From IMG/VR virus record IMGVR_UViG_3300008117_002553, positions 1 to 40,610 of that record: 40,610 bases of DNA; one strand, written 5' to 3'. Positions 23,201 to 40,610 of this stretch are shown here, piece by piece; position 1 is the stretch's first letter, and each line of letters starts with the position of its first letter. The notes beneath the pieces were generated by a model. The model was not told the DNA's origin. It was given only the letters and a program-made list of their open reading frames with translations, and ran no database searches. The DNA comes from a virus. The translations under genes were made by a program, and so were the position numbers.

Positions 23201-26200
23201 TAAAATTTCTTTCTCAGCAGCCCTACCAGTAAGTATAGGTAATACAGAATCTTCAGGATTATCCAGGTAATCTAGAATTTCTTGTCTTTCTTTATACCTT
23301 TCTCTAAGCTCAGTTTTCTTTTGCTTCTCTAGCTTCTTAGCCTCTTTAAAAGTTTGAGCTAAGGAAGAATTAGATTTCTTTTCTGCTTTTACAATACTAG
23401 CTACAAAAGGATTATTCTTTGTGTGCCATAATACATATTGCTGGAAAGCACTGTCTTCTGTATTACCATAAGCCATGAACTTAGGTCTTCCATTTGCATC
23501 TTTCTTTACATAATGATCCACTCTATGAATATAGAATGAGTCAATATCAAAGTCAGATCCTGTAAGAATGATAAGCTCTTTAGGGAAGATTGCATTAGAA
23601 CCCATCTCAGCAGGAAGAATGTCTACAATCTTTAAGGCCATAGCAGAATGCTTATCCTGTGTAGGAATTCTCACACCTAACATATAAGCAATTTCTTCGG
23701 GAATTTCATCACCAGGTCTAAGACCAAACTGCTCTGCAAAATGGAATGGTAAGATAATTTCTGCATAGCGTCCTATAATATTACCTGCAGCATCATACCT
23801 AGGTTGATCAAATGCTAACTCTCTAGTACCATATTCAGCCGTCTCGTATTTATCAGGGTCTGCTAAGTATTGCCTATTAGTAATTATTTTACCAGTGCTT
23901 TTATCAAAGATTATATTATGTCCAAAGCCTGATTGTAATGTAGTCTTGTAGCCAGCAATCTTTTGACTAAAAATCTTATTAAAGTGAGCATTAAACATCT
24001 CCTCAAACTTACTGACTACATCTGGTAAGTTGATATTATAAATAGGAGTACCACTAGGAGTAGTCTCTAAAATACTTAGCAACTTGTCAGAAGCTCCTGA
24101 TTGTTCAAGAGTCTCTTTAAAAATAGAAACAAGCCTTTTAAGCTTAGGAGTTACAACTCCTTGCTTTACTTCTGATATAAAACTCTTAGTAAACTTTGCA
24201 AACTCTGTGACACGCATTCCTAAAACTTGGGAATACATTTCATTGATTTGCCCTATAGTCATTTTCTTACCATTAGGTAAAATCACTTCTACTGAAGGGT
24301 CTTGCTCTACTGATAAAACTTTTAAAAGCTGTGTAGGATCTTTTATGTTTAGTTTGTTACTAGGATTTTCTTGCTGTAACCTAAAGTAGTCCCTGTTTAT
24401 AACTTGAATCTCTTCTTTATAAATGTTAGGTAAGCTGTTATCTTTATTAAGCATAACAGGGTTTTTGATCATCTTCTTACTCATAGAAGGAGGACCCATT
24501 AAATGGATTTTAGTAGGACCATCTTCCATTTTAGAACGCATGTCATGTAACCACTCTTTACCTTTCTGCGCTACCCAAGTATCAATACTATAAGACTTAC
24601 CGTCTTTAGTAGTATAAGTAACTTTCTTACGACGAGAGGTCTGTGACTTTTGTAGAGGTGCTATAGATAACTTAAGGTACACATTACCATCATAATAAAC
24701 CATCTTAAGAGAGTTCATCATGATTTGGTTCTCTGCTAAATACCTTTGATCACCTGCAGTTATTTCTTTACCTTCTGCAATCTTATCGTAAATTGTATGA
24801 CCTCTTTCAGTCATTCTTCCTAATGAAGAATAAATCTCACGGAACAGCTCTGTAGATCCATAGCCTTGTGCATCAGCTACTGCAATCTTACCGTCCTTTA
24901 AAGCTTTCTTAAGTTGGTCCTCAGTCAGCTCATTCTTAAGCTCAAGAAACTCTTCACTAAATTCTGTACTGTTTTTCTTATATACAGGAACTATTTTAGT
25001 TGGTCCTAATGCATAAGCATCACTCTTAATCTCATCAAAATCAGGAGTAATGTATGTAGCAAAATTAAAGCTAGTTTTCTTTACACCTCTGAATGTAACT
25101 AATGAAGTATTTCTACCAGAAGCATTCCTACCTTTATCACGCTTAAACTTATCAATAAAATCTTTTAAGGTAAGCGCAGGATCTCCTTCTAACATTTGGT
25201 TAGCTGCTAAATTATTCAGCATGTTAGACAAGTAAGTCTGCTTGATGTTAGTCCTAAGATTATCTGTTACAAAAAGCTGATTAGGATTATCCTTTTCAAA
25301 TGTATTAGAATAACCTGCAGGTAGCAAGATGTTTTGTAAAGCCCCGTTAGGACCTTTTCTTAAAATACCTAGCTCTACAAGTTCATCAATATGATCATCT
25401 ATTTCTTGTTCTAACCAAGCATTTAGACCTGTCTTAAGTTCTTCTTTAAAGCTTGATAAATCTTGAGCTTCAATCATCTCTTCCATCTTAGCTTGAGCCA
25501 TATCACCATAGATGCTTTCAAGAATTACTTGATTGTCAGCCCAGAACTTAGCAGCTCTGTGTTTATCTACAGGACCATAGTTGTAGTTAAGAATTCTAAC
25601 ACCGTTAAACTTACCATTTTGGTAACTCTTAATCCTTCTGTGTTCACGTTCTAACTCTTTATACAATGACTCTAAATAAGAATCATTAATAGTCCCAGTC
25701 TCTGGATCTACAGCATTGATAATCTCTAAAGATACTGTGTCTGCTGTATTACCAGACTCCATTACAGTAAGAAGAACTGGGCGTTTAGAAATTACTTTTC
25801 CATTAGCATAAACTGTCTCTTTAGTTGATGCATATAAAATGTACTGCAGCAAAGCAAACTCTCGGTCTGTCATACGTCCATATGTCACACCTTCAGTTAC
25901 ACGAGCTTCTATGTTTATCTTATTTTCTTTTGTGTCTGCTTTATAGTCAATAGATCTTTCACGTAAACCATCAATACGAGTTACTTTAAGAGTGCTTCTA
26001 ATAGCATCCCAATTCTTAGAAGTAAGCAAGTAATTGTCTAGTAGATACTCAAACATAGGATCTTGCTCAGCCTTCTTTTGAAGTTCTTCATAAGTCCAAT
26101 CTTCAGAAGTAGCAATTTCAAACATTTTCCTGATAGTGAAAGTATCAGTTTGCAAGCCGTAAATCATCTTACCCTCTGCGTTTATAAACGTAGAAGGTTC

Positions 26201-29200
26201 TACTGATTCATCAAAAATAGCATTATCTCTAGCTATGTCTTTAGCTCTAGTTACAGCTCCTTTAATACCAGCATCTTTCTTTTCTTCTCGTCTAAAAGGA
26301 TTAGCCTTGTCCATTTCATAAGACAAAGCTTGTAAATGCTCAAGAGTCTGAGTAAAATCAGTACCTAACTTATAAAGGTTTAGCCTACTCAATTGTCTTT
26401 CTGACTTTACCTGGAGATTAGGATTAGCTAGTAAAAGGTATTTAATGTACCCTACAGATAAATCTAAACCTGCTATCCTAGCCTGGCTTTTAATTTTTAG
26501 AGCTTTATCTACTAACTCTTGTTCTGTAAATGAAACAACGTCTTCTGATAAAAGAGTAATTACATTTTGAATAGCAGTCTTCTTAGCAGTTTTATCATTA
26601 GGAGACATATCGTAGTTATTAGCCCAAGACTCTACTTGGACTGTATCTACGTCTCTTACATTTGATTTAATAGGCTCTATTAATGAGCCTCTAGGATCAT
26701 CTTTTTTCTTATTAGGTCCTGCAGGATCTACAGAAGCAAAGTAATAATCTACATTCCAAAGGTTAAAAGCTGTAGCAACCATTTGTACCTCAGCTTCATC
26801 CTTCAGTTTTACTCCACTAAGATCTGCTTTACCTGTAACAGGGTCACGTTTAATACCCACAGACTCAAAGAATCTTGCAATAAACTGGCTCATTTCACCT
26901 GGAGTATCCAGTTGATCAGCCATAATATCCAATACTTTGTTCTTATCTGCTTGGTTAGCAGTTATCTTAGATAGGCCATTATATACCTTTTTAGGATCAA
27001 CTGCTACTCTAACTGGTATACCTTCAAACTCTTCAATGTTAGTACCTAAGTACTGATTTAGAGTAACCTCATATACAGTAAGAGCAATCTTCTTTTTTAG
27101 TTTTTTAGATAAGCTACCAAAGCCTCCTATCTGTTCCTGATTTTTATCATAGTTTCTTTCAGGACTATCATCAGAAAACTCAGTATCTGTTACATCTAAA
27201 GTAGTCTCATCTACATTATACTTGTTTAGAGTCTTCATTACTTCAGACGCTAACTCTTCAATAGATGCTTGGTTAGTGTACAAGTATATGAGATCTTGAT
27301 ACCTTTTAATACCTGCTACATCTTTAGATGCAAGAAGAGTTTGAGCAACAGAACTTTGAGGATTAAACTTCAACCCTTCTTTTTCTATTACTTTTAGGAT
27401 AACCTCTTCTACATTATCATTATCATAAGCTCCAGTTTCATCAGCAGCAGTTTTATTCAGCTGTTCTTCTATAATATCCAGTACTAAAGAAGCAATTTTA
27501 TTTACTTCTACTGTCTGTGTAGCACTATCTAAATACCTGTGATTGCCTGTAGTAGGATCAGTATGAAGGAATATATTGTTATACGCAGGAGCATGACCAT
27601 AAGCTGAAGTATCAAACCTATTGTTTACTTTAACTGCATTCTTGAACTTACCTTTTTCAATCTGTGCAAATAAAGTATCTAGTTCACTAGTCTGTGTAAA
27701 ACGGAATAAGTTCTTGATCTTTTCAAACAATCTTTGTAAGAAAGTCTTCTTACCTTTATTGTTCATATAATCCTTGAACTTTTCAGCCATGTACTCTTCA
27801 AGGATAAGCATGTCTACTACTTCAGGTAAAAGTGTAGCAGCCTCTGGTGTAAGTTTTAAGTACTCCTGCTTATGCTTTACATAGCTTTTACCTTCTTTAG
27901 CTAACTGCTCACGAAGCTCTTTTTTAGCTATAGCATAGTAATTATTCTGCTCTGTGTTAGTAAGCATAGTTCTAAACACAGCGTGGAACGCCTCATGGTA
28001 CTCAGTACCTACAGTAGCTGCAGCAAAAAGCTTAATTATGTTATTATTAAAATAGCCAAGGGTAGTTACACCATTAATAATATTAGCTTCTAATGCATCA
28101 AGTTCTTCTGCTGTAATCCAGCTAGGAAGGATCTTACGTAGATTAGCAAAAGCTGTAGCAAGATTAATACGTTCTTCTTCTGTTAATGTGCTACGCTCTA
28201 CTCTTGAAAAAGCAGCAGGAGGTCCTGGTCTACTTGATTGTGTATTGTCAAATTGTACAGGAATATCTCCAGCTGTATTATCTGGACTAAACTGTGTACC
28301 TGTAGGAATAGGCGTAGAAGTAATAGTATTTAAAACACCTGTTAAATTAGTTTGAGGTCCTGTAGCACTATCAATAGGGTTTACTCCTGGACTAGATTGT
28401 GCTTTTTGAGCAGCAATAAGAGCCTCTAAATCTCTTTTAGCTTGCTCAATCTCTTCAGTAGAACTAGTTCCTTTAGCTGCTGACTGAACAGGAGCAGCAG
28501 TAACAGTAGTTGCTAACTTAGTACGTACTGCCTCTATATCAGAAGCTTTAGCTTGGTAGATTAAAACTTCTCTTGGGGTAAGCTGTACACCTTGCTTAAT
28601 CTTACTAGCTATTGAGTTAATAATACTATCATTTACATTACCTGTATTTATAAACTCATTATATGCAGCATCTCCAATAACTTCTTTTACCACATTACCT
28701 GTCACAACAGCAGGAGCTGTTGGTTTTAAAGCAGTTAGTTCTGCATCATATTTAGCATTAATAACATCTTCTACGTTTATATCTAAAATAGAAGTATCTC
28801 CACCAAGTACAGTAACTGAAGCAGGTATTTTAAGCTCAGTTCCCAAGTAATCAAGTGTAAGATTACCATTAGAAAATCCAATAGGCATTCTTTCCCATCC
28901 TAATACATCTGTTAAATACTCTCTAAATTTTTTAAGTAGATCTTTTTCATTACCTCTAACTTTAATATAATTAGAAGGAGGAATAGTTTTTAATTGTTCT
29001 AAATCTGCTTTTATATTTCTTTCTATCTCTGCTTTCTTATTAGCAACAGGAGCAGGTTGAGTAGCTGCAGGAGGAGGTGAGCCTGCAGGTTTATAATCAG
29101 GAATAAGCACTGCTTCATTGAACCTGAATATAAGCTTCTGGTCTGAATTTTTAGGCTCTGTAGTAGAAGCAAGTTTAGATTCTAGATCTTGCACACTACT

Positions 29201-32200
29201 TAAAGATTGGGTACTGGTACTTGGATTAGTCTTAAATGCATTTACAGTAAGAGCTGTAGTACCTACAAGTGGACCTCCTGCTCTAGATAGAACAGCACGT
29301 CTATTTTCAAACTCTTCAATTAATTGATCGAATGTTCCTACCATACCTTCTATGTTCAAGAACATGGTAGTTTTATCTTCATTAAGTTGCCACCTTACTC
29401 CTTGGATAGTGCCTTCTTGAGGCTTATTTTTAAAGAAGGTAGGTGAACTAATACTTAATGAATACCCAGCTTTTCTTTCTTTACCTTGCTTGTCTTTACT
29501 CTTATAGTTAGGTAAAATCTTTAATCTAAAGTCTGAAGCATAAGAACCATTATCACCAAATGCTATGAACAACTTATTATTTATAGCATCGCTGATAGCC
29601 TTTCTTCCTTCTTTAGTACCAGGATCAGCTCCTGGAACAAGAGCTTCATTAAGTTGTTTCATCAACTCTACTCCATCTGTAAAAGAAGTAGAAGGAGTTA
29701 AAGCGGTCCATCTATAAGATACACCATTAATTTTAATAGGACCTCCAGGTTGTTCTACTAAAGCCCAGTATCTTGAGTAAGCACGGGTTTCAGTTTTAAT
29801 CCTGTGTAGATCTTTAAATGCATCTACAAGCTCAGGCTTTACTACTCTTTGTCCAAGAGTTCCTTCAGGAGCACCTGCAGGAATTTCTACAGAGTAAGCA
29901 TCTGTTTGACTTGTATTGTATGTGTTTATTTTCTCATTTTGAGAAAGATCAGTCTCTTCTTTACGAGCAGTATCTACAATTAAACTTTTACCTGCAGCAT
30001 TTCTATATAAAGTAAATTCAGAAAGGGGTACAAAGTCTTGACCTACTTGTACATATTTAAACCTACCAGTAGTCAAGTGAGGTACTACTAATCCTAGCAA
30101 CTCAGCATTACTGACTGTACCAAAATTACCACCTTTTAAAAACTTATCTGATGTTACATAATCATGAAAAGCTTTTGCTGCACTGTATGCTTTTTTAAAC
30201 TCAGCTAAAGGATACTCAGGGTTATTACCAAAGTAAGACTGGTACTGCTGTTGAGTCATAGTCTCAATAGGAATAGGAGCACCTGTAACTTTATCTATGA
30301 ATGTATCATAGAAAGTTATAAACCCTAAAGGCTTTCCTTTAAAAGTTACTACAAGACTAAACTCTGAAGCTTGCTTAGCTAACTTAGGATGCTCAGTTCC
30401 TTTTTCTGCAGAACCAAAAGGTATCCTACGTTTCTCTTGAAACCTGTCTACATCTAGAGCAAGGTAATCATAGAAATTTTCAGTAGCTAGAAGTTCTTCA
30501 AACAACGCAGGATCCTCAGTCCTAGTGACAACCTCTTGGAATTCTCTAGGTCCTTTGAACATGCTTTGGAAAAAAGCATCTAGAGTACTTACAGCTTCTT
30601 GCTCCTTAGCTTGACTTACTTGTGCAGAAAGTTTGTCTAGATCACGTTGAAACTTCTCTTCATTAATAGGAAACCCTAAAGCTCTAGCTTCTGCAATAAC
30701 CTTAGCTTTTTCTGCAGCAGTATTAGCATTCCTATACTTAGTCTGCAAATCTTTTAAAATACTTTGCTTCTCTTCTCTAAACTTAATCTCTTCATTAAGA
30801 GCAGAAGCATACTCAAGTTTAGTTGCATACTCAGGACTTTGAGGGTCAAGATTTGACAGCTCTTTTTGAGTTTCATTGTAAAGATCTACTAAATCTTGAT
30901 CTTCAATTTTAGCAATATCTAATTCCTCTCCTCCAGGAGTAACTGTAGGTTTAGACCTATCTTGAGTACCTACATTATTAATAATCTCTGCAGCTTCTTG
31001 CTCTGTTGTAACAAGTGGGCCTTCTTTAGCAGCATCTCTTTTGGCCTTTTCATTAGACATAATAGACTTAAGCATTTCCTTTTGGAAATTCCTAGTAGCA
31101 CCTCTAGCTTTAGGATTTCTTAAATCATTTATGTAAGAAATTACTTGTTCTCTTTTTTCAGCTAACTTATTTAAATCTGCAAGAGTTTCAAGTATTTCAT
31201 CAGAGACTAAAGGGTACTTATCAGTTAATTGCTGTACAGCATTATTATATTCTTTTCTGTACTCATCTAATAGCAAATCTCTGTATTCTTGGTAATCAAT
31301 TCTTTCTGTAGGAGTAGCCTTTAATCCAAGAACCTTCTCAAGCTTTTTATTATAATCTTCAGCAGCCTTATCATACTCTTCATAACGCTCTTCCATGTTT
31401 TCACTGGTAAGCATTTTATGAGCAAGTATCATTCTCTTACGAGCTGAATCTAATTCAGCAGAACCTGTAAGTTGGGTAAGGGCTTTACCCATAGAAGTTT
31501 CCCTTTCTTCTATATTATCAAGTGTAAAAGATGCCTCATATAAAGCATTCTTTAACCATTGATTTTCTGCAATCTGTTCAGGAGTACCTTGAGAGAGTCC
31601 ATACATGCGCTGGATATTCTCATGCATCTTTTCAAATCTATTGATCCTGGTTAAGATTTTATCTATTGCTGCATTCTTATCTCCAAGTTTAGTTTCTTCA
31701 AATCCAAAAAATTGTGCAGCATCTGTATCAGGAGCTTGTTTAAGGCTTTCTAATCTAGCCTTTAGAATATCTGTCTGGTCAGTTTCAATATAAGCCTGTA
31801 CATATTTACCAAGCGCAAAAGATTCTTTATTATTAGCTTCAAATAAATCTTTATTCTTCTTAGCTTCTTCTGATGCATTTAGTGCATTGTTAGCTAATAA
31901 GAAATTAGCCATTTTAGACCCACCTGTAACAAACTCTGGGTCACTCATTTGGACTTCAATACGTTTCTTAGTATTTGCTTCACGAGCAATACGTTCAGAC
32001 TTAGCACCTTTTAAACCAAAAGGTCCACCCACAATACCACCAATAAGAATAGACTGAAGACCTTCTTTGCTACTTAAAGATTCATCTATACCTTCGGCCA
32101 TACCTCCAACTACTGCTTCTAACCAATCTTGTTTTCCAAGCACATAGTTATTTACAAATTGTTGAGAAGCTATGTTAGATGCAAACTGCCCACCTTCTTG

Positions 32201-33238
32201 TAAAGCTTCAGGAAAAGCACCTTTCAAGAAAGCTTCTCCACCATTTACTAAGGCACGTCTAGAGTTATCTAGAGTAGCATCTTTAAGGATTAATTTACCA
32301 GCATCATCTACTGTTCTAGTAATCCTGTTATATTCTCTAATAGAAGCTTTAGTACCAGGGTTAATAAATCTACCTAACAATATCATGTCTGTAGGACCTG
32401 TAATTGCTAGATTCATTATGTAGTTACTATTAGCCGCATCTTTAGCTAAACTCTGTATCTCTTCATCTGTCTTTCCTATAAAGGCAGGATCTCCAGCTTC
32501 TCTTAATCTTTCAGCTTGTAAAATATATCCTTCATAAGTCTCTCTAGATTCTAAAGCAGACTCTCCATGCGCCATAACCATACCTATACCAAACTGCTTA
32601 GCCATAGGTAAAGTCTCTTTAAATAGTTGGCTTGCTGTAACGCCTTTTTGTAAAACTTGTTCTGCAGAAGCTGCATCAGAAATAAGTCTTCCTGAAGCTG
32701 CAGCTTTACTTAAACCAAATAATTTTCCTAAGCCATAACCTGCAGCTAAAGAACCTATAGTATACCCTGCTCCATTAAATACTTTATCAAACCAAAAATT
32801 TGCAGAACCTGCAGTACCTGGAAGAGCACCTTGATACCAAGCTGCATCTTTTTCAGCTTGACTGTAATAAAAAGGAGCTACTTCTCTAGTCCAGTCTGTA
32901 AGAGGAGTTATAATATTATCAGTAAAATCATTCTTCCATATCTTCTCACTATCTTGATTTATAGCCGCTGCTGTAATACCATACGCAAATCCTACTGTAG
33001 CTTCTAATGCACCAGTAGTAGCACTAGATGCCATACCTGCTAAACCATTACCAAACTTATCTAACGAAGATTGTCTTCCAGCTCTAAGCTCTTCAATATC
33101 CATATTAGGTAATAACCCTTTATCATATTGAGAAGGCTCAGAATAAATACTTACGCTAGGTATAGCTAGGTTCTCATAATACCTCTTAAGAGCTGGATTG
33201 TCAGGAGAGATATTATTTATAATAGGAGGTCTAGACAT
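20258..33238 (-). CDS. Giant virion RNA polymerase fused to a zincin-like metallopeptidase
   Basis: This is a 4326-residue protein. The catalytic loop DFDID (D3229, D3231, D3233, within LTGSDFDIDSFYIHR) is that of the crAss-like single-chain RNA polymerase (phi14:2 gp66 type), which is packaged, ejected and transcribes early genes. Further upstream lies HEAFH (1748-1752, in EYHEAFHAVF) with a later LILEEYMAEKF (1811-1821), the HExxH plus glutamate pattern of a gluzincin-type metallopeptidase. A Pro/Thr-rich linker (about 1620-1720) precedes it. The N-terminus carries Gly/Ala-rich hydrophobic stretches (about 62-93 and 155-182) suited to membrane insertion during ejection. In other crAss-like phages these functions are often on separate proteins, so this form is notably large. 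Confidence 0.88.
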   Translation of the reverse strand: MSRPPIINNISPDNPALKRYYENLAIPSVSIYSEPSQYDKGLLPNMDIEELRAGRQSSLDKFGNGLAGMASSATTGALEATVGFAYGITAAAINQDSEKIWKNDFTDNIITPLTDWTREVAPFYYSQAEKDAAWYQGALPGTAGSANFWFDKVFNGAGYTIGSLAAGYGLGKLFGLSKAAASGRLISDAASAEQVLQKGVTASQLFKETLPMAKQFGIGMVMAHGESALESRETYEGYILQAERLREAGDPAFIGKTDEEIQSLAKDAANSNYIMNLAITGPTDMILLGRFINPGTKASIREYNRITRTVDDAGKLILKDATLDNSRRALVNGGEAFLKGAFPEALQEGGQFASNIASQQFVNNYVLGKQDWLEAVVGGMAEGIDESLSSKEGLQSILIGGIVGGPFGLKGAKSERIAREANTKKRIEVQMSDPEFVTGGSKMANFLLANNALNASEEAKKNKDLFEANNKESFALGKYVQAYIETDQTDILKARLESLKQAPDTDAAQFFGFEETKLGDKNAAIDKILTRINRFEKMHENIQRMYGLSQGTPEQIAENQWLKNALYEASFTLDNIEERETSMGKALTQLTGSAELDSARKRMILAHKMLTSENMEERYEEYDKAAEDYNKKLEKVLGLKATPTERIDYQEYRDLLLDEYRKEYNNAVQQLTDKYPLVSDEILETLADLNKLAEKREQVISYINDLRNPKARGATRNFQKEMLKSIMSNEKAKRDAAKEGPLVTTEQEAAEIINNVGTQDRSKPTVTPGGEELDIAKIEDQDLVDLYNETQKELSNLDPQSPEYATKLEYASALNEEIKFREEKQSILKDLQTKYRNANTAAEKAKVIAEARALGFPINEEKFQRDLDKLSAQVSQAKEQEAVSTLDAFFQSMFKGPREFQEVVTRTEDPALFEELLATENFYDYLALDVDRFQEKRRIPFGSAEKGTEHPKLAKQASEFSLVVTFKGKPLGFITFYDTFIDKVTGAPIPIETMTQQQYQSYFGNNPEYPLAEFKKAYSAAKAFHDYVTSDKFLKGGNFGTVSNAELLGLVVPHLTTGRFKYVQVGQDFVPLSEFTLYRNAAGKSLIVDTARKEETDLSQNEKINTYNTSQTDAYSVEIPAGAPEGTLGQRVVKPELVDAFKDLHRIKTETRAYSRYWALVEQPGGPIKINGVSYRWTALTPSTSFTDGVELMKQLNEALVPGADPGTKEGRKAISDAINNKLFIAFGDNGSYASDFRLKILPNYKSKDKQGKERKAGYSLSISSPTFFKNKPQEGTIQGVRWQLNEDKTTMFLNIEGMVGTFDQLIEEFENRRAVLSRAGGPLVGTTALTVNAFKTNPSTSTQSLSSVQDLESKLASTTEPKNSDQKLIFRFNEAVLIPDYKPAGSPPPAATQPAPVANKKAEIERNIKADLEQLKTIPPSNYIKVRGNEKDLLKKFREYLTDVLGWERMPIGFSNGNLTLDYLGTELKIPASVTVLGGDTSILDINVEDVINAKYDAELTALKPTAPAVVTGNVVKEVIGDAAYNEFINTGNVNDSIINSIASKIKQGVQLTPREVLIYQAKASDIEAVRTKLATTVTAAPVQSAAKGTSSTEEIEQAKRDLEALIAAQKAQSSPGVNPIDSATGPQTNLTGVLNTITSTPIPTGTQFSPDNTAGDIPVQFDNTQSSRPGPPAAFSRVERSTLTEEERINLATAFANLRKILPSWITAEELDALEANIINGVTTLGYFNNNIIKLFAAATVGTEYHEAFHAVFRTMLTNTEQNNYYAIAKKELREQLAKEGKSYVKHKQEYLKLTPEAATLLPEVVDMLILEEYMAEKFKDYMNNKGKKTFLQRLFEKIKNLFRFTQTSELDTLFAQIEKGKFKNAVKVNNRFDTSAYGHAPAYNNIFLHTDPTTGNHRYLDSATQTVEVNKIASLVLDIIEEQLNKTAADETGAYDNDNVEEVILKVIEKEGLKFNPQSSVAQTLLASKDVAGIKRYQDLIYLYTNQASIEELASEVMKTLNKYNVDETTLDVTDTEFSDDSPERNYDKNQEQIGGFGSLSKKLKKKIALTVYEVTLNQYLGTNIEEFEGIPVRVAVDPKKVYNGLSKITANQADKNKVLDIMADQLDTPGEMSQFIARFFESVGIKRDPVTGKADLSGVKLKDEAEVQMVATAFNLWNVDYYFASVDPAGPNKKKDDPRGSLIEPIKSNVRDVDTVQVESWANNYDMSPNDKTAKKTAIQNVITLLSEDVVSFTEQELVDKALKIKSQARIAGLDLSVGYIKYLLLANPNLQVKSERQLSRLNLYKLGTDFTQTLEHLQALSYEMDKANPFRREEKKDAGIKGAVTRAKDIARDNAIFDESVEPSTFINAEGKMIYGLQTDTFTIRKMFEIATSEDWTYEELQKKAEQDPMFEYLLDNYLLTSKNWDAIRSTLKVTRIDGLRERSIDYKADTKENKINIEARVTEGVTYGRMTDREFALLQYILYASTKETVYANGKVISKRPVLLTVMESGNTADTVSLEIINAVDPETGTINDSYLESLYKELEREHRRIKSYQNGKFNGVRILNYNYGPVDKHRAAKFWADNQVILESIYGDMAQAKMEEMIEAQDLSSFKEELKTGLNAWLEQEIDDHIDELVELGILRKGPNGALQNILLPAGYSNTFEKDNPNQLFVTDNLRTNIKQTYLSNMLNNLAANQMLEGDPALTLKDFIDKFKRDKGRNASGRNTSLVTFRGVKKTSFNFATYITPDFDEIKSDAYALGPTKIVPVYKKNSTEFSEEFLELKNELTEDQLKKALKDGKIAVADAQGYGSTELFREIYSSLGRMTERGHTIYDKIAEGKEITAGDQRYLAENQIMMNSLKMVYYDGNVYLKLSIAPLQKSQTSRRKKVTYTTKDGKSYSIDTWVAQKGKEWLHDMRSKMEDGPTKIHLMGPPSMSKKMIKNPVMLNKDNSLPNIYKEEIQVINRDYFRLQQENPSNKLNIKDPTQLLKVLSVEQDPSVEVILPNGKKMTIGQINEMYSQVLGMRVTEFAKFTKSFISEVKQGVVTPKLKRLVSIFKETLEQSGASDKLLSILETTPSGTPIYNINLPDVVSKFEEMFNAHFNKIFSQKIAGYKTTLQSGFGHNIIFDKSTGKIITNRQYLADPDKYETAEYGTRELAFDQPRYDAAGNIIGRYAEIILPFHFAEQFGLRPGDEIPEEIAYMLGVRIPTQDKHSAMALKIVDILPAEMGSNAIFPKELIILTGSDFDIDSFYIHRVDHYVKKDANGRPKFMAYGNTEDSAFQQYVLWHTKNNPFVASIVKAEKKSNSSLAQTFKEAKKLEKQKKTELRERYKERQEILDYLDNPEDSVLPILTGRAAEKEILEDIKAVRKELEPITKLVEQIEERFVKYAMQELDMPTTEEAFNKEKPANIGALNNELLDYKTALLTNEHIRKEIGLTPATLRQIKDEVLPEIMQLLGYQKDGLDYGKKKVTFSISGLIKAFSANKAGSIAIGAAVNATQQYATFSKFGLPLIGEGVKIDGLTTAGIVKDKFKASETKSKEGGTVRIMDTLSTATSSMTDNSKYLFNKLLNLGLETLGVVSYGVQQGVPLKQMVLLINNEYVVRLLKQTKSYNIQTLDEQDKSVKATQDGLIEELIQKIKEYDPEVKLNDLLQEELTYEELTKYLPYSSLGKAYSLDSNKETYYSRLESAVIPGFSIIDYYKAQYKMLMAYIKLNDQQIFLNKTNALIKMTKGISGAENDRSFSADDQLLQNLEDMNIKVVKQDNKLYFTHIDPRRVDAKKAAAAGVSTVPFDLLPIIQNDPLLRANLTEFFEKQDIAKKVFVSKTEFVEKAKTIVNNNIRKVQTAVRRKALRSFRRNLESYLNSLAFRKWWATNMTSPMPDFGGLLYKELAEKGNTLKDKIDNFVTTYPEMRNNLFFKLINYKESETTGFMAININTRNQKEFAGKVLDAFDTLFNHSAEGRALANELFFYEMARNSLQFKNNSFVSYIPNHRFKIISDNIQLSMDALNTMDPTKFNDRFGATKQQIMLDFMDRFFTDINNSRAVFALPVNKRTSAYAFVDSTTNELHFPVVDKIRGYTEDEARIVRNSRHDDLGAIDTKDGNRSTSFPLYLKYGPRKTRTLYRLKSINGVAIENIDFLTGTAELGNFNGASAVYEPVTYSGSNVDNFITYSMTKEEKERVTEHLQRKLAAKQVNAAQINEDANAAMSVPTGSEDITNDLKALQIAQQAAESAVKMPTTGLGGLLKPFDQSELGTIPGETGSMSMFNPAPLPASIKANPSPENKAVLNEAQMRQQLAEYYMQIYNNPTVDETTKAKAGLKISLAPRMSFELLVEEYNKMCK

Positions 33239-33239
33239 C

Positions 33240-35153
33240 TTATTGATTTTGGAATAATTTACTTAAAATGATGTTTCTTAAAGGTTCAGATTGTGAGTAC
33301 AAAGTAAGTACTGAAGTCCTTAAGTCTGCAGGAGTAGTATTTTCAAACTGGAAAACTTCTCCATTTTCTCTAATAATTCTAAAACTAAGTTTAGGATTAG
33401 CTTTAGAGTCTGCGGATAATACAGCTGGAGCTATAATAATATTAGCCTCATCCATAAACTTGATAGGCATCTTCATACTATTTGCAGACAATACCATATT
33501 CTCAATTAAAGGGCCTATATAAGTACTAAAGTCTTGTTTAAGCTCAGCATCATTTTTACCTACATATAAAGTTTGCGTTGTACCATCTTTACTTTTTACT
33601 AAAACAGATTCAGGAATAGCAAAGCTATATTTCTGAGCTCCTGGAATGTTTAAAGGTACAGTATTATCAGAACTTAAAGTTCCTTGAGCAGCTATAACTT
33701 CCCAACCTTCATCTCTTAATTGAGTACCAGGGATTACATTTTTAGTTTTAGGACTGTAGAATGTATAATTTTCCATTTGTACATTATACATATCCCCTAT
33801 TTGTTTGGCCTTAGTAGCATTTTTATAACCATTTACTACAGAAGAAACCTTGACATTTTTACGTTTAGCAATATTATCATTAATAATTTTCCAATCATTG
33901 CTAGTTAAATTATTTATAGGAGTGCTTGCAAGTGTAGGAATTTCACTTTTTACATAGTTAACTACTTCTCTATCATAAACAGGAAGAGCATCATAAATTT
34001 GCTGAGAGCTTCTGTCTACTTTAATACGTTTAGGAACTTCTATTGTTTGACCTGTCTCATCTACTACTTCATAATCTACTTCTCCAGTCATTGTAGTATA
34101 AGGAAGAGACGCATTTTGAATGTTCTTTAAAACATTATCTATATCATTAGCTTCTTGTTGATAGCTCATAGCTAAAGGAGCAGTTGCAGCTTCTTCTTCT
34201 TTCTTGCGTTGGTCTGCAGCATATTGGTCATACACATAGTCATAATCATATTTCTCATATGATTCTCGTTGAGCTAAGTTTTGACCTATACCTGCATAAA
34301 AATCATGTAGAGCAGCTGCAGGTCCTGTTAAAGTTTCATATACAATATTACCTTGTTTGTCTTTACCTTTTGCAACTTGTTTTGTATAGCTAGGATCAAC
34401 AGAACTTGCTACTAACTTATTTACAGTTCTTAACTCAGGTATGTTTAATCCCATAGAATATACACCTTTTGCTACTTCATCAAAGGATACAAACTCTTTT
34501 GTACCATGTACTAAATAACCTGTATAAGCACCAGTCTTAGGATCATAATAAGGAGTTAATCCCATAGGATATTTAGTAGCCTTCCATTTAGAAGTTGCTT
34601 CATCTAGTATTTTAAATACTTCAGGTAATTTAGGCATAGCACCTAAACTAAGATTTGTGGTAAGACCTTTTTCATCCCTACCATGACCACCCATTGCAGC
34701 GTATTGTTCAAGAGGTTGTGCAATTGCAGCTTTGTATACAAAGTCATCTAGCCCTGAAAATTTACCATCCATAGAGCTCTTTTTATAATCTTCTTGAGCT
34801 TGTTCTAAAGCTACAGCTTTTTGATGCATTTGTCCTAAATCTCCATAGGTAGCATCTTGCATAAACTTAGATTTAACTTGTCTAAGTCCTGACATCATAG
34901 CTGCAGGATTTCCTCTAGTCTCATCATATAAAGTAGATACCATATTCCTATAAAGATTAAGACGTTCATCTCTTTTAGGAGTATCTATATCTTTGATAGC
35001 TTTTAGCTTACTAAACTCTGCCTCAAGATCTGTATATAATTTATCAGCTTCTTCTTCTTTCTTAGCTCTTTTCTCATACCCATATGCTAATGCCTCAAAA
35101 GGTAATGGTGCGATTTTTACATCTAGCCATTTAGTCCACGGTGATATTGCCAT
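33240..35153 (-). CDS. Virion-type structural or cargo protein (637 aa)
   Basis: I do not recognise a named family. The protein begins AISPWTKWLDVKIAPLPFEA and has a charged, coiled-coil-like N-terminal third (YEKRAKKEEEADKLYTDLEA), then a mixed region with Gly/Tyr-rich loops and a C-terminal beta-rich part (FRIIRENGEVFQFENTTPAD). There are no cysteine clusters or membrane segments. It lies between the double-glycine protein (11 bases from that gene) and the giant RNA polymerase (1 base), in the block that in crAss-like phages encodes capsid cargo and ejection proteins. A scaffold or linker for packaged RNA polymerase is a reasonable but unproven inference. Confidence 0.65.
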   Translation of the reverse strand: MAISPWTKWLDVKIAPLPFEALAYGYEKRAKKEEEADKLYTDLEAEFSKLKAIKDIDTPKRDERLNLYRNMVSTLYDETRGNPAAMMSGLRQVKSKFMQDATYGDLGQMHQKAVALEQAQEDYKKSSMDGKFSGLDDFVYKAAIAQPLEQYAAMGGHGRDEKGLTTNLSLGAMPKLPEVFKILDEATSKWKATKYPMGLTPYYDPKTGAYTGYLVHGTKEFVSFDEVAKGVYSMGLNIPELRTVNKLVASSVDPSYTKQVAKGKDKQGNIVYETLTGPAAALHDFYAGIGQNLAQRESYEKYDYDYVYDQYAADQRKKEEEAATAPLAMSYQQEANDIDNVLKNIQNASLPYTTMTGEVDYEVVDETGQTIEVPKRIKVDRSSQQIYDALPVYDREVVNYVKSEIPTLASTPINNLTSNDWKIINDNIAKRKNVKVSSVVNGYKNATKAKQIGDMYNVQMENYTFYSPKTKNVIPGTQLRDEGWEVIAAQGTLSSDNTVPLNIPGAQKYSFAIPESVLVKSKDGTTQTLYVGKNDAELKQDFSTYIGPLIENMVLSANSMKMPIKFMDEANIIIAPAVLSADSKANPKLSFRIIRENGEVFQFENTTPADLRTSVLTLYSQSEPLRNIILSKLFQNQ

Positions 35154-35164
35154 GTCTTATAGTA

Positions 35165-37732
35165 TTATTTAAATTTCCTAATTGCTCTCATTCTATTTAA
35201 TGCAGGTATAGAAGTATCTGGTGTAAACTTAAACTGTCCTATATCACCTGTAGTTCTATTACCTCCAGCTGTGTAACTGTTAATATCTATATCAGATAAA
35301 CCAGGTACAGTAGTGTTAGTAGAAGGAGGATAAGCCATACGCAAAGCATCCATCATTTGTTTGTTCTGCCAGAGTTGACCTGCACCTTGACCGATATTTT
35401 CTAAACCTTTTCCTATTCCTGCTACTTTATTTTCTCTAGCTTGTTGAGCAAGATAATCACGATTCATACGCATCTGCATGTTAGATTGCTGAATAGCTTT
35501 ATTCAATCTATCAGTTTCCATGCGACCCATTCTATTTCTATTCTCAAGAGCTTCTTCATACGCAGCTAAGTTTTGTTGATATGTATTAGTACCAGATTGT
35601 AAAGCAGCTAAAGCATTAGAGCCTCCAATCTGACGTGCATTATATTTATTAGCCATATAAGCACCAAGCATACCTTTACGTCCAGCTTCTCCAGTCATAT
35701 CTTGCCACTTCGTATCAGCAGGAGTTTCATAGCTACCAGGCTTCCAAGCTTTCTCAAAGATACCACGACCTAAGTTATAAGCAGCAGGTAAGAACTGAGC
35801 AGCCATTAAGTACTTATCCATCTGACTAGTACCCATGCCAGCACCTGTAGATTTATTAGCAGTTGTACCAGCTGTACTAGCATCGGCACTTTCATCTAAA
35901 CCAGCACCAGTCAATCTACTGTAGAAAGCAGGATAAGTACCCTCTCCACGAAGAGGTTTGTTTACATTTTTATAAGCATCACTTACTTCTGAAGCACCCA
36001 TAAGTTGATACTGAGGTTCAGCTATACTAAGAGGATTTACAGCCGCACCTATTGAATTAAGAGTACGCATTGGAGCCATAGGCATAGAGTCTTGAAACCC
36101 TTGTAAATAAGAATTTATACCTGGCATAGGATTAGTCATAGGACCATAACCATCACTATTAAAATCGTAGTAAGGGTTTAATCTAACTCCAGCTCCTCCG
36201 TCATATCTAGGAACCATACCACCTCTAGCATACATACGCTTAATTGCTCCACCATATTTAGCTACTATACGATTCATTGCTGCACCAGCTTTTTGTTCTT
36301 CAAGTGCAGCTATTTGTGCATCTTTAGCTTCTTTTTGAGCTTTCTCTCTTTCTATTGCATTAAACTTTGAAGCTAAAGCTATAAGATCACGGTTATTATA
36401 ATCTTTTAGCATTGATTCAGTTTTGGCTTTAGTTCCTATAAATTGACTATTACCTACATTCCACATACTTTCTCCTCTTTCTACATTTATATCTCCACTT
36501 TTTGTAGGTACAGTACCTGAAGGATCTATACCTATTTCAGGATGAGGAGCCATACCACCAGAAGCATATTTAGTTTTAGGTTTAGCATTAAGCCATTGAT
36601 TGTATTTATCTTTTAAAGACATTGGTTCTTTTTCAGGCATACCACCCATAGCAAAGATAGGCATTTGTAAACCTTCTGGGTAGTTTATTGCACCTCCCAT
36701 AGCCATACCCATGTTAGAATGATTCTTCATACTTATTACATGAGATAAGTCTCCTATTTTAGTAGTACCTCCCATACCATAAGCATCTACCATACCACCA
36801 TACTCTTTCTTTTCAGCAGCACGAATCTTCCTTTCTTGCTTCAGCATTTCTTTAGTAGGCTTACGACCTGATCCTTTATTAGCTCTAATATTATCCCAAA
36901 GACCACGACGAGAATAAGAACCATCTTTACGCTTAATCATACCTCCACGACCATAGTCTTCCATCATTGCATATCCACCCATCTCATACATCTCAGGAGT
37001 AGGCATACCCATAAGTTGATATACATCTACTACACCACCTTGTGCATAACTATCTATATAATCTTGTGCTTCACCTGGACTCATGTGAGATTCAAGTCTA
37101 GAGCGTAGTACATTATCTGGAATTTTACCTCCATCTTCAAAAGTTAAAGACACTCCAGCATTAGGATTTTTACCTATGTTTATAAAAGGCTTTACATTTT
37201 TCATAGGATATGAAACACGCATTCCATAATCTGCAGGAATTTTTTTAAAGTATTCATTACCTACACCTACAAGATAAGGAGACACATTTAAATTATTATC
37301 TCCCCGATAATTAAATCCTAAACCTCCTATAAACATATTACTATTAGGATCTCTAGTTAAAAAACCTTGAGGTTGAAAATTAGAAGATTCTGATTGTTTT
37401 AATTTGTTTAATTTTAAATCTATGTCAGAACCTTCTCCATACATATCTACATAACCACCTTCTTCTTTCTTCTTACGTTTAGCAGCCATCTTATGAAAAG
37501 TCTTAGCTAAAGCTAAAGCACGTCCTGTACATCCAGGTTTAGACATAGGAGTACATTTACCTTCTGTACCACGCTTTTTAATAGAAGCAGTGGCTTTTTG
37601 TATCCACCCACCTTTCTTATATTCTTCTACCATTCCACCCATAGCCATTTCAAATGCTTCTTGAGTAGGATATTGTTGATAGAACTCTTGTTCAGAGAGT
37701 CCAGTCATTTCAAGTATTTCTTGTTTAGTCAT
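35165..37732 (-). CDS. Virion-type protein with repeated double-glycine motifs and a beta-rich domain
   Basis: The 855-residue protein is built from short segments separated by [YF]-A-x-G-G-hydrophobic motifs (for example MAMGGMVEEY, YKKGGWIQ, YAQGGVVDVY, YARGGMVPRY; about fifteen between residues 31 and 512). Between GG motifs at 92 and 201 lies a strand-rich stretch (about 118-199: MFIGGLGFNYRGDN, VSPYLVGVGN, YGMRVSYPMKNVKPFINIG, AGVSLTF) resembling outer-membrane barrel strands. An early basic segment has a Cys pair (KRGTEGKCTPMSKPGCTGRA). The C-terminal third is Gln/Asn-rich and helical, with an Ala/Gly zipper near 772-785. Position in the late block suggests an ejected protein that might help cross the host envelope; the role is inferred. 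Confidence 0.65.
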   Translation of the reverse strand: MTKQEILEMTGLSEQEFYQQYPTQEAFEMAMGGMVEEYKKGGWIQKATASIKKRGTEGKCTPMSKPGCTGRALALAKTFHKMAAKRKKKEEGGYVDMYGEGSDIDLKLNKLKQSESSNFQPQGFLTRDPNSNMFIGGLGFNYRGDNNLNVSPYLVGVGNEYFKKIPADYGMRVSYPMKNVKPFINIGKNPNAGVSLTFEDGGKIPDNVLRSRLESHMSPGEAQDYIDSYAQGGVVDVYQLMGMPTPEMYEMGGYAMMEDYGRGGMIKRKDGSYSRRGLWDNIRANKGSGRKPTKEMLKQERKIRAAEKKEYGGMVDAYGMGGTTKIGDLSHVISMKNHSNMGMAMGGAINYPEGLQMPIFAMGGMPEKEPMSLKDKYNQWLNAKPKTKYASGGMAPHPEIGIDPSGTVPTKSGDINVERGESMWNVGNSQFIGTKAKTESMLKDYNNRDLIALASKFNAIEREKAQKEAKDAQIAALEEQKAGAAMNRIVAKYGGAIKRMYARGGMVPRYDGGAGVRLNPYYDFNSDGYGPMTNPMPGINSYLQGFQDSMPMAPMRTLNSIGAAVNPLSIAEPQYQLMGASEVSDAYKNVNKPLRGEGTYPAFYSRLTGAGLDESADASTAGTTANKSTGAGMGTSQMDKYLMAAQFLPAAYNLGRGIFEKAWKPGSYETPADTKWQDMTGEAGRKGMLGAYMANKYNARQIGGSNALAALQSGTNTYQQNLAAYEEALENRNRMGRMETDRLNKAIQQSNMQMRMNRDYLAQQARENKVAGIGKGLENIGQGAGQLWQNKQMMDALRMAYPPSTNTTVPGLSDIDINSYTAGGNRTTGDIGQFKFTPDTSIPALNRMRAIRKFK

Positions 37733-37733
37733 G

Positions 37734-40610
37734 TTATTTAAGATTATCTAGCCAGCCGCCAGAAGATTTTTTGTTATCAATCAAACCACCTTGTTTATGA
37801 AACCTTACTATATGGTCATATCCTCCTAAATTATTTTTAACCTTTCCTATACGTTTCATATTTAATCCTGTACCAACAACTTCTCGTTCTTTAGCAGTAG
37901 CATCAGAAAAAGCCCTTCCAAATTTTTCAATAGTTTCACGTCTTCTTATATCTTTAGGATCTACTCTATTTACCATTTCTAAAATAGTTTCTTCTGGTAA
38001 ATCTTCATATACCTGTTTTATAAAAAGAGGGTGCGCTTCTTTAAGAGATCTATTAGGTACTACAATTCTGTCTGTATCAGCTATATTTTGCATTGTACCT
38101 CCAACACCTGCAGAAAAAGAAGTAGGCCTATTACCTAAATTAAATAAATTATTTTCAAAGTTTAAAAATTCTTTTACATCAGGTCTTACTCTTCTAGTAA
38201 GAATAACTTTAGAAGAAGGCTCTTTTAAAGAAGCTGTTGCTATTATGTTATGCATAGCTCTTCTATTCTTTTTAACTGTAGAAGTTAAATCGTGTTTCTT
38301 TAACATACTATTAAACCCAGTATAAGGAGTGCTCCCAGCTGCATAGTCAGCCATAATTGCTTTTTCTTGTGGTGTAAGAACTCTATTATTTTGAAGCTCT
38401 TTAAACATTCTTTCAGATTCTTCTTGAGTTAGATTAACTGCGGGACTTTTCCAAGCAATTGGTAAAGAAGATTCTCCTGTAGCAATTTCATTATATAAAC
38501 TTTTTACTCCTTTACTAAAATCAGTTATACCTGTTGTAGCTTCACTAGCTACATTTTTACCATATTGTCCAAGTGCTTTAGCTAATGGTTGGCCAGCTTT
38601 AAACCCGCCAAAGAAAGCCATAGCTAGTGGATCATCTAGTACACTATTACCTGCACCAGGTTCTTGTATACCTTTCTTGTAGTCTTCTACAGAATATTTA
38701 CTTTGATCTTTAGCTATAACTTTTTCACGCCTCTCTTTCTCTCTAGATGCAGGAGTAGATATGACTCTACCTGTAGTAGTAGTAACGGGTTGATTAGCTT
38801 TAGCTAAACCAGATTGTACAGTAGCAGGATTAAGATAAGGTTTAGTTATATCTACATCTCCTCCTTCTTCATAAAAATCTAACCATCCTCCATTAGCTTT
38901 TTTCTGAGGAGCTCTATAACCCATCTTTAATAACTGCTCTTCAGTGTATACTGGAGGTACTTGAGGTACATTACTAAACTCTCCTCTAGTATCCATGTAT
39001 TGAGTAGGTAATGGATTACTTTCAGGTACATTTACTTTCTGAGGCATAGCTTCTATATTATCAGAAGGTAAGCCTCGCATGGGTAATAACTCTTCTAATA
39101 TTATTTTTTGTATAGGTTTTTTATATAAATCAATAGCTGATGCACCCCACTTATGCAGCATATACTCTCTACCAGTAGGTTTGATATTTTTATTAATCTT
39201 ATTAGGATTATTTACATATATTTTTTCTTCTTTAACCTCTCTTTTTTCAAATGGACTAAGTTGTTCAAATGACGCATTACCATATAATCCTTCTGGATGC
39301 CCATGTTCATCTTTACCCCAAGAGCGATCACTATCAAAGTTATATGCAGAATTAAATAAAGCTAGGCTATCACTATAAGCTTTTTTTCTCCTAGCAAATT
39401 CTTTAGGATCAGAAGTTACATAAGGAGGCACATCTCCACCATCTGCAAAAGTACGAGTAGTAGGAGTTACTTTAGGTTGTCTAGCCTTGCCTTTATATTT
39501 ATAAGGATTCTTTTCTCCTCCAAAATTAAACTGAGCTCCTACACCAAAAGTATTACTTAAAGGATCATAAGAACCTTGTACAAAAGTATCTCTACCAAAA
39601 TCTAATCCTGCTGAGATAGGAAGTCTTGTTCCATAAGGATCTTTTATAACCTCTGCAGACATATAAGGATTAAACTCATAGTTCTTAGGTAATCCTGTAT
39701 ACGCAGCTTTTACTTTAGCTTTACTAAATATGTTACCTGCAAAAGTAGGAGCAACTCTTTCTTCAGTTATTAATCCAGAGGGATCAGTAATATAATTAGA
39801 GTAACCTCTATTTACTCCTCCTGACAGACCTACTGATGCAGAAGGATTAAACATAACATTACCTACTTTAATATGAGGTGATACTCCTAATTGTCCAGCA
39901 AGCATAGCACTACGTTGAGCACCAAATCCCCCTTGAGCTGAAAGAGAAGGGTTTAGTTTACCTCCAAAATAACCTGAGATATTACCTCCCATCAATGGAA
40001 GTTCAGGAGCATTTTTTTGATAAAACGCACTAACACCTCCTGTAATAGTAGGCTTAACTTCTTTTACTTCTACATCTCCACCATTTCTAAAAGACCCCAT
40101 TCCTTGAGGTTGAAACATATTCATCATGCCCATTATGTCTCCACTCTGAAACATGTTAAGACCTTTTCCTACTTTACCAGCTTGACCTGCATATTTACCT
40201 ATATCTGTTGCATTGAATTTAGCCATCTGACCAGTATTATTCATACCACCCATAAAGCCAGAACCCATTTGAGCTAAGTTTAATCCTAAACCTCCCCATT
40301 TTTTTAAATCTTCTGAAGCATTAGGACTATATTGAAGAATATCATTTGTTCCTTCAGCTCCTTGTCCTATAGCTCCAGCTACATTACCTGATGCTATACC
40401 TCCAGCTATAGCTCCTCCAATCTTACCTGCACCGTGCAATCTTTTTAATCTTTGTCCTGCCTTATCATCATAAGTAGTATTAGCTGCTTGTGATAATGCA
40501 TCATGAGCCATATCAGTAAGAGAGTCTGTCATTCCTCCTGTTACTGTATCAAGAGTTCCTTCTAAAGCACCAAATGCAAACTCCCCAGCTTGACGTAAAA
40601 ATCCTCCAGA
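37734..40610 (-). CDS. Virion-type cargo protein with beta-rich and ADP-ribosyltransferase-like domains, open at the right edge
   Basis: The frame stays open from an internal ATG at 40532 to the window edge (26 more codons, including SGGFLRQAGEFAFGALEG), so the true start lies outside. Residue numbers count from that ATG. Residues about 158-338 form a strand-rich region (NPSASVGLSGGVNRG, FNPYMSAEV, FGVGAQFNFGG) bracketed by GG motifs FRNGGDV and FADGGDV. Further GG motifs are KKANGGWLDF, YEEGGDVDI, KQGGLID and KSSGGWLD. The C-terminal region (about 700-915) resembles an ADP-ribosyltransferase: LTPQEKAIMADY then PYTGFNSMLKK, LTRRVRPD (R780/R781), PTSFSAGVG (S805, S807) and AKEREVVGTGLNM (E882-R-E884). 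This arrangement suggests a virion-packaged enzyme delivered into the host; enzymatic activity is inferred. Confidence 0.7.
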   Translation of the reverse strand, partial: SGGFLRQAGEFAFGALEGTLDTVTGGMTDSLTDMAHDALSQAANTTYDDKAGQRLKRLHGAGKIGGAIAGGIASGNVAGAIGQGAEGTNDILQYSPNASEDLKKWGGLGLNLAQMGSGFMGGMNNTGQMAKFNATDIGKYAGQAGKVGKGLNMFQSGDIMGMMNMFQPQGMGSFRNGGDVEVKEVKPTITGGVSAFYQKNAPELPLMGGNISGYFGGKLNPSLSAQGGFGAQRSAMLAGQLGVSPHIKVGNVMFNPSASVGLSGGVNRGYSNYITDPSGLITEERVAPTFAGNIFSKAKVKAAYTGLPKNYEFNPYMSAEVIKDPYGTRLPISAGLDFGRDTFVQGSYDPLSNTFGVGAQFNFGGEKNPYKYKGKARQPKVTPTTRTFADGGDVPPYVTSDPKEFARRKKAYSDSLALFNSAYNFDSDRSWGKDEHGHPEGLYGNASFEQLSPFEKREVKEEKIYVNNPNKINKNIKPTGREYMLHKWGASAIDLYKKPIQKIILEELLPMRGLPSDNIEAMPQKVNVPESNPLPTQYMDTRGEFSNVPQVPPVYTEEQLLKMGYRAPQKKANGGWLDFYEEGGDVDITKPYLNPATVQSGLAKANQPVTTTTGRVISTPASREKERREKVIAKDQSKYSVEDYKKGIQEPGAGNSVLDDPLAMAFFGGFKAGQPLAKALGQYGKNVASEATTGITDFSKGVKSLYNEIATGESSLPIAWKSPAVNLTQEESERMFKELQNNRVLTPQEKAIMADYAAGSTPYTGFNSMLKKHDLTSTVKKNRRAMHNIIATASLKEPSSKVILTRRVRPDVKEFLNFENNLFNLGNRPTSFSAGVGGTMQNIADTDRIVVPNRSLKEAHPLFIKQVYEDLPEETILEMVNRVDPKDIRRRETIEKFGRAFSDATAKEREVVGTGLNMKRIGKVKNNLGGYDHIVRFHKQGGLIDNKKSSGGWLDNLK

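What the first reader, a model, noticed from the sequence alone, without database searches (positions are those of the whole stretch)
37788..38435. Probable ADP-ribosyltransferase domain at the C-terminus of an ejected crAss-like cargo protein
Residues about 700-915 show the ART element order: LTPQEKAIMADY with a following PYTGFNSMLKK helix, an Arg after a strand (VILTRRVRPD, R780/R781), an S-x-S loop (PTSFSAGVG, S805/S807) and an E-x-E before a Gly turn (KEREVVGTGLNMKRIGKV, E882/E884) followed by a final strand (YDHIVRF). That is the R-S-E triad with the ExE of Arg-type mono-ADP-ribosyltransferases. T4 injects comparable enzymes (Alt, with ModA/ModB made later) to reprogramme host transcription. 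Packaging one with the virion RNA polymerase would be a striking early takeover strategy for crAss-like phages.
Basis: partly seen in the sequence, partly recalled or inferred. Interest (0 to 1): 0.85.

Follow-up and report, generated by a model that had tools for sequence, protein, structure and literature searches.

The report
Swappable effector cassette in crAss-like cargo
A crAss-like phage gene for a protein probably injected with its DNA ends in a module that looks like an ADP-ribosylating enzyme, and in related phages that module is missing or replaced by other modules, as if the phages exchange the enzymes they inject into bacteria.

Summary
The element order fits the Alt/VIP2 (R-S-E) class of ADP-ribosyltransferases. 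A T4-Alt-derived N-terminal signature occurs once here, nowhere in 0.79 million decoy residues and 6 times in 47 million shuffled ones; the full ordered signature is absent from 300,000 shuffles. No family model, solved structure, profile comparison or predicted model confirms it (AlphaFold pLDDT 38), and no homologue of the module was found. So ART is likely (about 0.7), not proven. T4 ModA and ModB also lack a Pfam ART hit.

The larger result is the context. In relatives the gene lies between a crAss muzzle homologue and the cargo/virion RNA polymerase genes. Three share its scaffold: one lacks a 1.1-kb stretch holding the ART between 86% and 93% identical DNA flanks, one has an unrelated module there, one ends in a lysozyme-like domain. 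The edges lie at GGWLD-coding repeats, a motif that also caps many other phage cargo proteins. Best reading: an exchangeable injected-effector cassette, here an arginine-type ART. Virion delivery is inferred. Injected phage ARTs are known; this setting appears new.

The parts
37734..40610 (-). cargo-type protein carrying the candidate ART (932 aa from the first in-window ATG at 40532; frame open to the window edge)
   Evidence: position next to muzzle homologue in relatives
37800..38435 (-). candidate ADP-ribosyltransferase domain, residues 700-911
   Evidence: motif order and statistics; no family hit
38343..38378 (-). LTPQEKAIMADY, N-terminal ART helix motif (with PYTGFNSMLKK at 38295-38327)
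   Evidence: matches the T4 Alt-family signature
38178..38207 (-). VILTRRVRPD, candidate first strand with catalytic Arg (R780 or R781)
   Evidence: position relative to Alt LYRG; PSSM block score negative
38100..38126 (-). PTSFSAGVG, candidate S-x-S (STS-type) loop, S805/S807
   Evidence: T4 ModA has SAS at the aligned place; PSSM block score negative
37839..37892 (-). KEREVVGTGLNMKRIGKV, candidate ExE (E882, E884) and following strand
   Evidence: aligns with Alt EMEVILPRGLMVKVNKI
38493..38750 (-). pre-module (residues 595-680) shared with relatives whose C-terminal modules differ
   Evidence: 63% identity to G055 over window residues 561-679, then similarity ends; weak homologue in L078 (E 4e-4)
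37778..38886 (-). about 1.1-kb cassette (pre-module plus ART) absent from relative G002, which has about 50 bp at this place
   Evidence: blastn: gene nt 1450-1646 86% and nt 2756-2796 93% identical to G002 with nothing collinear between
38871..38903 (-). KKANGGWLDFY-coding repeat at the proximal cassette edge
   Evidence: 23 of 33 nt identical to the distal copy
37740..37772 (-). KKSSGGWLDNL-coding repeat at the distal cassette edge (C-terminal tail)
   Evidence: a GGWL-type tail is found in 48 ORFs
40362..40421 (-). Gly-rich hydrophobic stretch IGGAIAGGIASGNVAGAIGQ (residues 38-57), possible membrane-interacting segment
   Evidence: most hydrophobic 19-residue stretch of the protein, mean 1.27; role is inference
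35165..37732 (-). next cargo gene, 855 aa, with GCTGRA basic motif; candidate counterpart of crAss001 gp45 (C1)
   Evidence: weak profile match to the gp45 C-terminal region, P = 0.005
33240..35153 (-). cargo-type gene, 637 aa, in the C2 position
   Evidence: position only; no profile match to gp46
20258..33238 (-). 4326-aa fused virion RNA polymerase polyprotein (gp47-like N-terminal part, HEAFH zincin motif at 27983-27997, gp50-like DFDID at 23540-23554)
17028..20258 (-). 1076-aa gp49-like RNA polymerase-associated protein

Best explanation
The region is an effector cassette at the C-terminus of a crAss-like phage cargo protein. Its enzyme is most likely a mono-ADP-ribosyltransferase of the R-S-E (Alt/VIP2) class with an ExE, hence probably arginine-directed. 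The cargo protein, encoded between the muzzle and the other cargo and RNA-polymerase genes, would be packed in the virion, extruded partly unfolded through the tail, refold in the host cytoplasm and ADP-ribosylate host proteins (RNA polymerase, translation or defence factors) before or while the co-injected virion RNA polymerase starts early transcription. The cassette is bounded by repeats coding for GGWLD and is exchanged or lost among relatives. Shown: motif order, gene neighbourhood, replacement or loss of the module with conserved DNA flanks on both sides. Inferred: ART fold and activity, target, packaging and ejection.
For: ART: exact R/S/E placement; Alt-derived signature rates and block test; side-by-side alignment TPAQKRGIREYVGSGYVDINNAL / TPQEKAIMADYAAGSTPYTGFNSML and EMEVILPRGLMVKVNKI / EREVVGTGLNMKRIGKV. 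Absence from Pfam is weak counter-evidence because T4 ModA and ModB also lack an ART hit. Cargo: RNAP, gp47- and gp49-like genes adjacent; in G001, G002 and G055 a muzzle-family gene directly precedes the homologue (gp44 against G001 E 1e-19); crAss001 gp45-gp50 are virion cargo (PMC10172136). Cassette: G002 lacks it with 86% and 93% identical flanks; G055 shares residues 355-679 at 50%, then carries an unrelated 370-aa module and the same tail; G001 has a lysozyme-like C-terminus; G002 carries an SLT transglycosylase at its N-terminus (Pfam E 5e-10).
Against: No Pfam, PHROGs or PDB match. hhalign and the Alt HMM do not single the domain out. In the block test the Arg and S-x-S blocks score negative; only the N-terminal and ExE blocks are good. 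LPRG, typical after ExE in Alt, is GTG here, and Alt's STS is SFS. No homologue of the module, so no conservation test. AF2 unusable. Presence in the virion is unproven.
Confidence: 0.58

Rival explanations
1. The module is an exchangeable effector or enzyme of another fold, and the ART-like motifs are coincidental. It is still injected cargo.
For: No profile or structural support; Arg and S-x-S blocks do not score; other proteins of this class carry a histidine phosphatase, an M91-type peptidase, peptidoglycan-binding or -cleaving domains and unknown domains.
Against: Signature rate of about 1e-7 per shuffled residue and no full match in 300,000 shuffles; R, SxS and ExE fall in the right order and spacing.
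Confidence: 0.27
2. The domain has an ART fold but no transferase activity: a structural or binding part of the virion, or an NADase.
For: Departures from the consensus (GTG for LPRG, SFS for STS, LTRR for LYRG); ART superfamily members with other activities are known (PMC9503650).
Against: All catalytic positions of the R-S-ExE set are filled; a purely structural part would not be expected to be dispensable (G002) or replaced (G055) at the same place.
Confidence: 0.12
3. The protein is made late but not delivered to the cytoplasm: it acts in the infected cell, or is a tail or channel component whose C-terminus is an envelope module.
For: Relatives carry transglycosylase and lysozyme-like modules in the same protein, which suit passage through the envelope; no homology to gp45.
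Against: Neighbourhood of virion cargo genes on the same strand; an enzyme needing cytoplasmic NAD+ is of little use outside the cell.
Confidence: 0.2

Closest known systems
T4 Alt (and ModA, ModB)
   Same: R-S-E class motif order; Alt is head-packaged and injected; N-terminal helix motif and ExE strand align
   Different: No significant profile similarity; T4 is a myovirus; Alt is not known as a swappable cassette inside a larger cargo protein
MuF-ART and N4-like vRNAP-ART polyvalent proteins (PMC5512222, PMC9503650)
   Same: Multidomain, probably injected proteins near virion genes; ARTs next to or fused with virion RNA polymerase and zincin peptidase domains
   Different: N4-type ARTs are H-Y-[EDQ], not R-S-E; term searches for crAss in those two papers found nothing; carrier and GGWLD edges are different
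Crassvirales cargo proteins C1 (gp45) and C2 (gp46) of crAss001 (PMC10172136)
   Same: Same gene position after the muzzle gene, upstream of the virion RNA polymerase genes
   Different: No homology to gp45 (P = 0.76); no enzymatic module of gp45 is described in the passages read; the next gene (855 aa) is the better gp45 candidate
Polymorphic toxin systems (PMC3482391)
   Same: Constant carrier plus pre-module followed by replaceable C-terminal enzymatic tips
   Different: Here in a phage cargo gene with a conserved tail after the tip; immunity genes were not sought

Membership tests
ADP-ribosyltransferase, R-S-E (Alt/VIP2) class | Arg on first core strand, S-x-S/STS, ExE in order and spacing | tested here: met
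   R780/R781, S805/S807, E882/E884; full signature 0 of 300,000 shuffles; but Arg and SxS PSSM blocks negative
ADP-ribosyltransferase, R-S-E (Alt/VIP2) class | Match to the curated family profile PF03496 (a usual but not a necessary feature) | tested here: not met
   No match; T4 Alt scores 5e-35, while the proven ARTs ModA and ModB also fail, so failing it does not exclude membership of the superfamily
ADP-ribosyltransferase, R-S-E (Alt/VIP2) class | ART fold with the triad clustered at an NAD pocket | tested here: inconclusive
   AF2 without homologues: pLDDT 37.6, pTM 0.23
ADP-ribosyltransferase, R-S-E (Alt/VIP2) class | Catalytic residues conserved in homologues | tested here: inconclusive
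   No homologue of the module found
ADP-ribosyltransferase, R-S-E (Alt/VIP2) class | NAD+-dependent ADP-ribose transfer | not testable with these tools
   Needs an enzyme assay
Crassvirales-type virus | crAss virion RNA polymerase, gp47- and gp49-like proteins | tested here: met
   DFDID and gp47-like parts in the 4326-aa ORF, 1076-aa ORF against gp49 E 4e-53
Crassvirales-type virus | Muzzle (gp44 family) directly upstream of the cargo genes | tested here: met
   In relatives G001, G002, G055; in the window itself the gene would lie off the edge
crAss001 C1 cargo protein (gp45) | Sequence homology to gp45 | tested here: not met
   hhalign P = 0.76
Virion-delivered effector or polyvalent protein | Multidomain architecture with interchangeable enzymatic domains next to virion genes | tested here: met
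   Comparison with G001, G002, G055; SLT in G002
Virion-delivered effector or polyvalent protein | Presence in virions and entry into the host | not testable with these tools
   Needs proteomics and a translocation assay

The most novel reading that the evidence does not exclude
Crass-like phages carry a dedicated effector-exchange locus: a cargo protein whose enzymatic tips (ARTs, peptidases, phosphatase, murein hydrolases and unknown domains) are swapped between GGWLD-coding repeats, with the GGWLD peptide also serving as a packaging or delivery tag for cargo. This would be a phage counterpart of polymorphic toxins, diversifying what is injected with the virion RNA polymerase.
Probability: 0.35. 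Interest if true: 0.85.

Novelty: new variant of a known kind. Interest (0 to 1): 0.62.

Why it matters
crAss-like phages are the most abundant viruses of the human gut (PMC10172136), yet little is known of host takeover by their injected proteins beyond the virion RNA polymerase. A cargo gene with exchangeable enzymatic tips would give a place to look for early takeover and anti-defence enzymes in crAss-like genomes, and the GGWLD motif gives a simple handle for finding them. If the ART is active, it suggests that the T4 strategy (an ART injected with the genome) also exists in phages that bring their own RNA polymerase.

Tried and rejected
Pfam, PHROGs and PDB scans of the domain: empty. tblastn in phages and plasmids, pattern-based searches in IMG/VR and GTDB contigs: no homologue of the module. 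AF2 single-sequence model: unusable. PF03496 against 48 related records: nothing. Alt HMM and hhalign: no discrimination, also poor for the true ARTs ModA/ModB. Several high-scoring decoys in the block test were read and not taken as ARTs. A sister module (YYRGIG...) found in many related cargo proteins has an ART-like element order; its AF2 model is poor (pLDDT 49) and the fold search meaningless, so it is not claimed as ART. Identity with gp45 (C1) was considered and rejected.

Full report
Observation. Coordinates 37788-38435 are residues 700-915.

Is it an ART? Curated profiles say nothing: no Pfam, PHROGs or convincing PDB-sequence match, and PF03496 does not ring even at E 10. That silence is weak evidence, because of the three proven T4 ARTs only Alt is found by Pfam (5e-35), while ModA and ModB are not. 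I fetched T4 Alt and six relatives from other T4-like phages and used them as an independent yardstick. In the alignment the window has the Alt N-terminal element (TPAQKRGIREYVGSGYVDINNAL against TPQEKAIMADYAAGSTPYTGFNSML), a strand ending in Arg, an SxS loop and an ExE strand (EMEVILPRGLMVKVNKI against EREVVGTGLNMKRIGKV) in the right order. A signature for the N-terminal element hits six of seven Alt domains, the window, none of 790,714 decoy residues and 6 places in 47.4 million shuffled residues. The full signature occurs in none of 300,000 shuffles of this C-terminus. The regular expression was written with the window in view, so it flatters. The blunter PSSM-block test gives 0 of 3,000 own shuffles and 2 of 2,895 decoys at or above the window's score, carried by the first and last blocks only. 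hhalign against Alt does not separate it (25 of 700 decoys score as high; ModB is worse). AlphaFold without homologues fails (pLDDT 37.6). I put ART at about 0.7, and arginine specificity, which rests on ExE alone, lower.

Genome context. The window is an IMG/VR fragment with crAss-like replication genes on the plus strand and, on the minus strand, the 932-, 855-, 637-, 4326- and 1076-aa genes. The 4326-aa ORF fuses a gp47-like part, a HEAFH zincin motif and the gp50-type DFDID polymerase motif; the 1076-aa ORF matches gp49. Three relatives were found: G001 (RNAP 54%), G002 (57%) and G055. In all three the homologue of the 932-aa gene directly follows a gene of the muzzle family and is followed by counterparts of the 855-aa and 637-aa genes and, where the stretch reaches that far, the polymerase. 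In crAss001 the genes after the muzzle encode cargo found in virions, proposed to be extruded partly unfolded (PMC10172136). The 932-aa protein is not itself a detectable homologue of gp45; the 855-aa neighbour is the better candidate. Delivery is therefore inferred from position.

The cassette. Against G002, the window gene is 86% identical at the DNA level over nt 1450-1646 and 93% over the last 41 nt, while the 1.1 kb between (window 37778-38886), which encodes the pre-module and the ART, is missing. Against G055, residues 355-679 are 50% identical, with 78% DNA identity over nt 1479-1917; similarity then stops, G055 continues with an unrelated 370-aa module and rejoins in the same tail ...QSGGWLDNL. 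G001 keeps less of the scaffold and ends with a lysozyme-like domain whose homologue in G055 sits at the N-terminus; G002 has an SLT transglycosylase at its N-terminus. Both cassette edges lie at a KKxxGGWLD-coding repeat (23 of 33 nt alike). So the module is exchanged or lost between close relatives, as expected of an effector more than of a structural part.

A wider class. A DNA pattern for NGGWLD[KN] brought 120 IMG/VR stretches (scan stopped at its limit). 48 ORFs end in a GGWLD-type tail (redundant loci included), many with a second copy near residue 45. Among 47 of these proteins Pfam finds a histidine phosphatase, LysM, SLT, PG_binding_1, an M91 effector-type peptidase and DUF6973, each in one member. 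In part of the class a shared pre-module (PSEAxGIxNPxGAxAxDxxxDPxNLxGAG) is followed by different modules. Thirty-seven of the stretches also hold a crass-type gene by blastp; the rest are unassigned. GGWLD is not discussed in the open literature searched.

Verdict. The ART reading is likely but unproven. Injection is plausible by synteny. The exchangeable cassette is the firmest and most interesting result. Injected phage ARTs, polyvalent proteins and polymorphic toxins are established (PMC5512222, PMC9503650, PMC3482391), so I call this a new variant of a known kind.

Noticed in passing
38871-38903, 37740-37772 and loci L033-L152: GGWL[DN]-type motif near the N-terminus, between modules and at the extreme C-terminus of many phage cargo-type proteins; crAss001 gp45 has FGGWLNTQGG inside and the Dulem virus 41 counterpart ends in HGGFLNI. 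Function unknown; candidate packaging tag or recombination site.
   Followed up: partly
L133:2008-2367, L048:11627-11989, L084:5617-5970, L008:11536-11949 and others: Widespread YYRGIG module of about 120 aa with ART-like element order, in relatives' cargo proteins including G001. Its AF2 model is poor, so the fold is open.
   Followed up: partly
L111:2062-5430 (C-terminal part): Module with FRGSGVHNPEL...FTGDYNLARAYGNAY before a GGWLD tail; looks like another ART-type arrangement, untested.
   Followed up: no
38493-38750 and L078:8107-10926: The pre-module has a weak homologue (E 4e-4) in L078, again followed by a different C-terminal module and an SNGGWLDNLK tail.
   Followed up: partly
39490-40080 (residues about 150-348); also L008:15739-16479: Gly- and aromatic-rich beta-type repeats ending in a phenylalanine, reminiscent of outer-membrane barrel strands; possible envelope channel. 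PDB sequence searches gave only weak, implausible hits.
   Followed up: partly
20258-33238: Very large (4326 aa) fusion of gp47-like, zincin (HEAFH) and gp50-like RNA polymerase parts; gp47 and gp50 are separate genes in crAss001.
   Followed up: partly
35165-37732: 855-aa protein carries the basic EGKCTPMSKPGCTGRALALAKTF motif, which resembles a stretch of crAss001 gp45; possible DNA- or portal-binding element.
   Followed up: no
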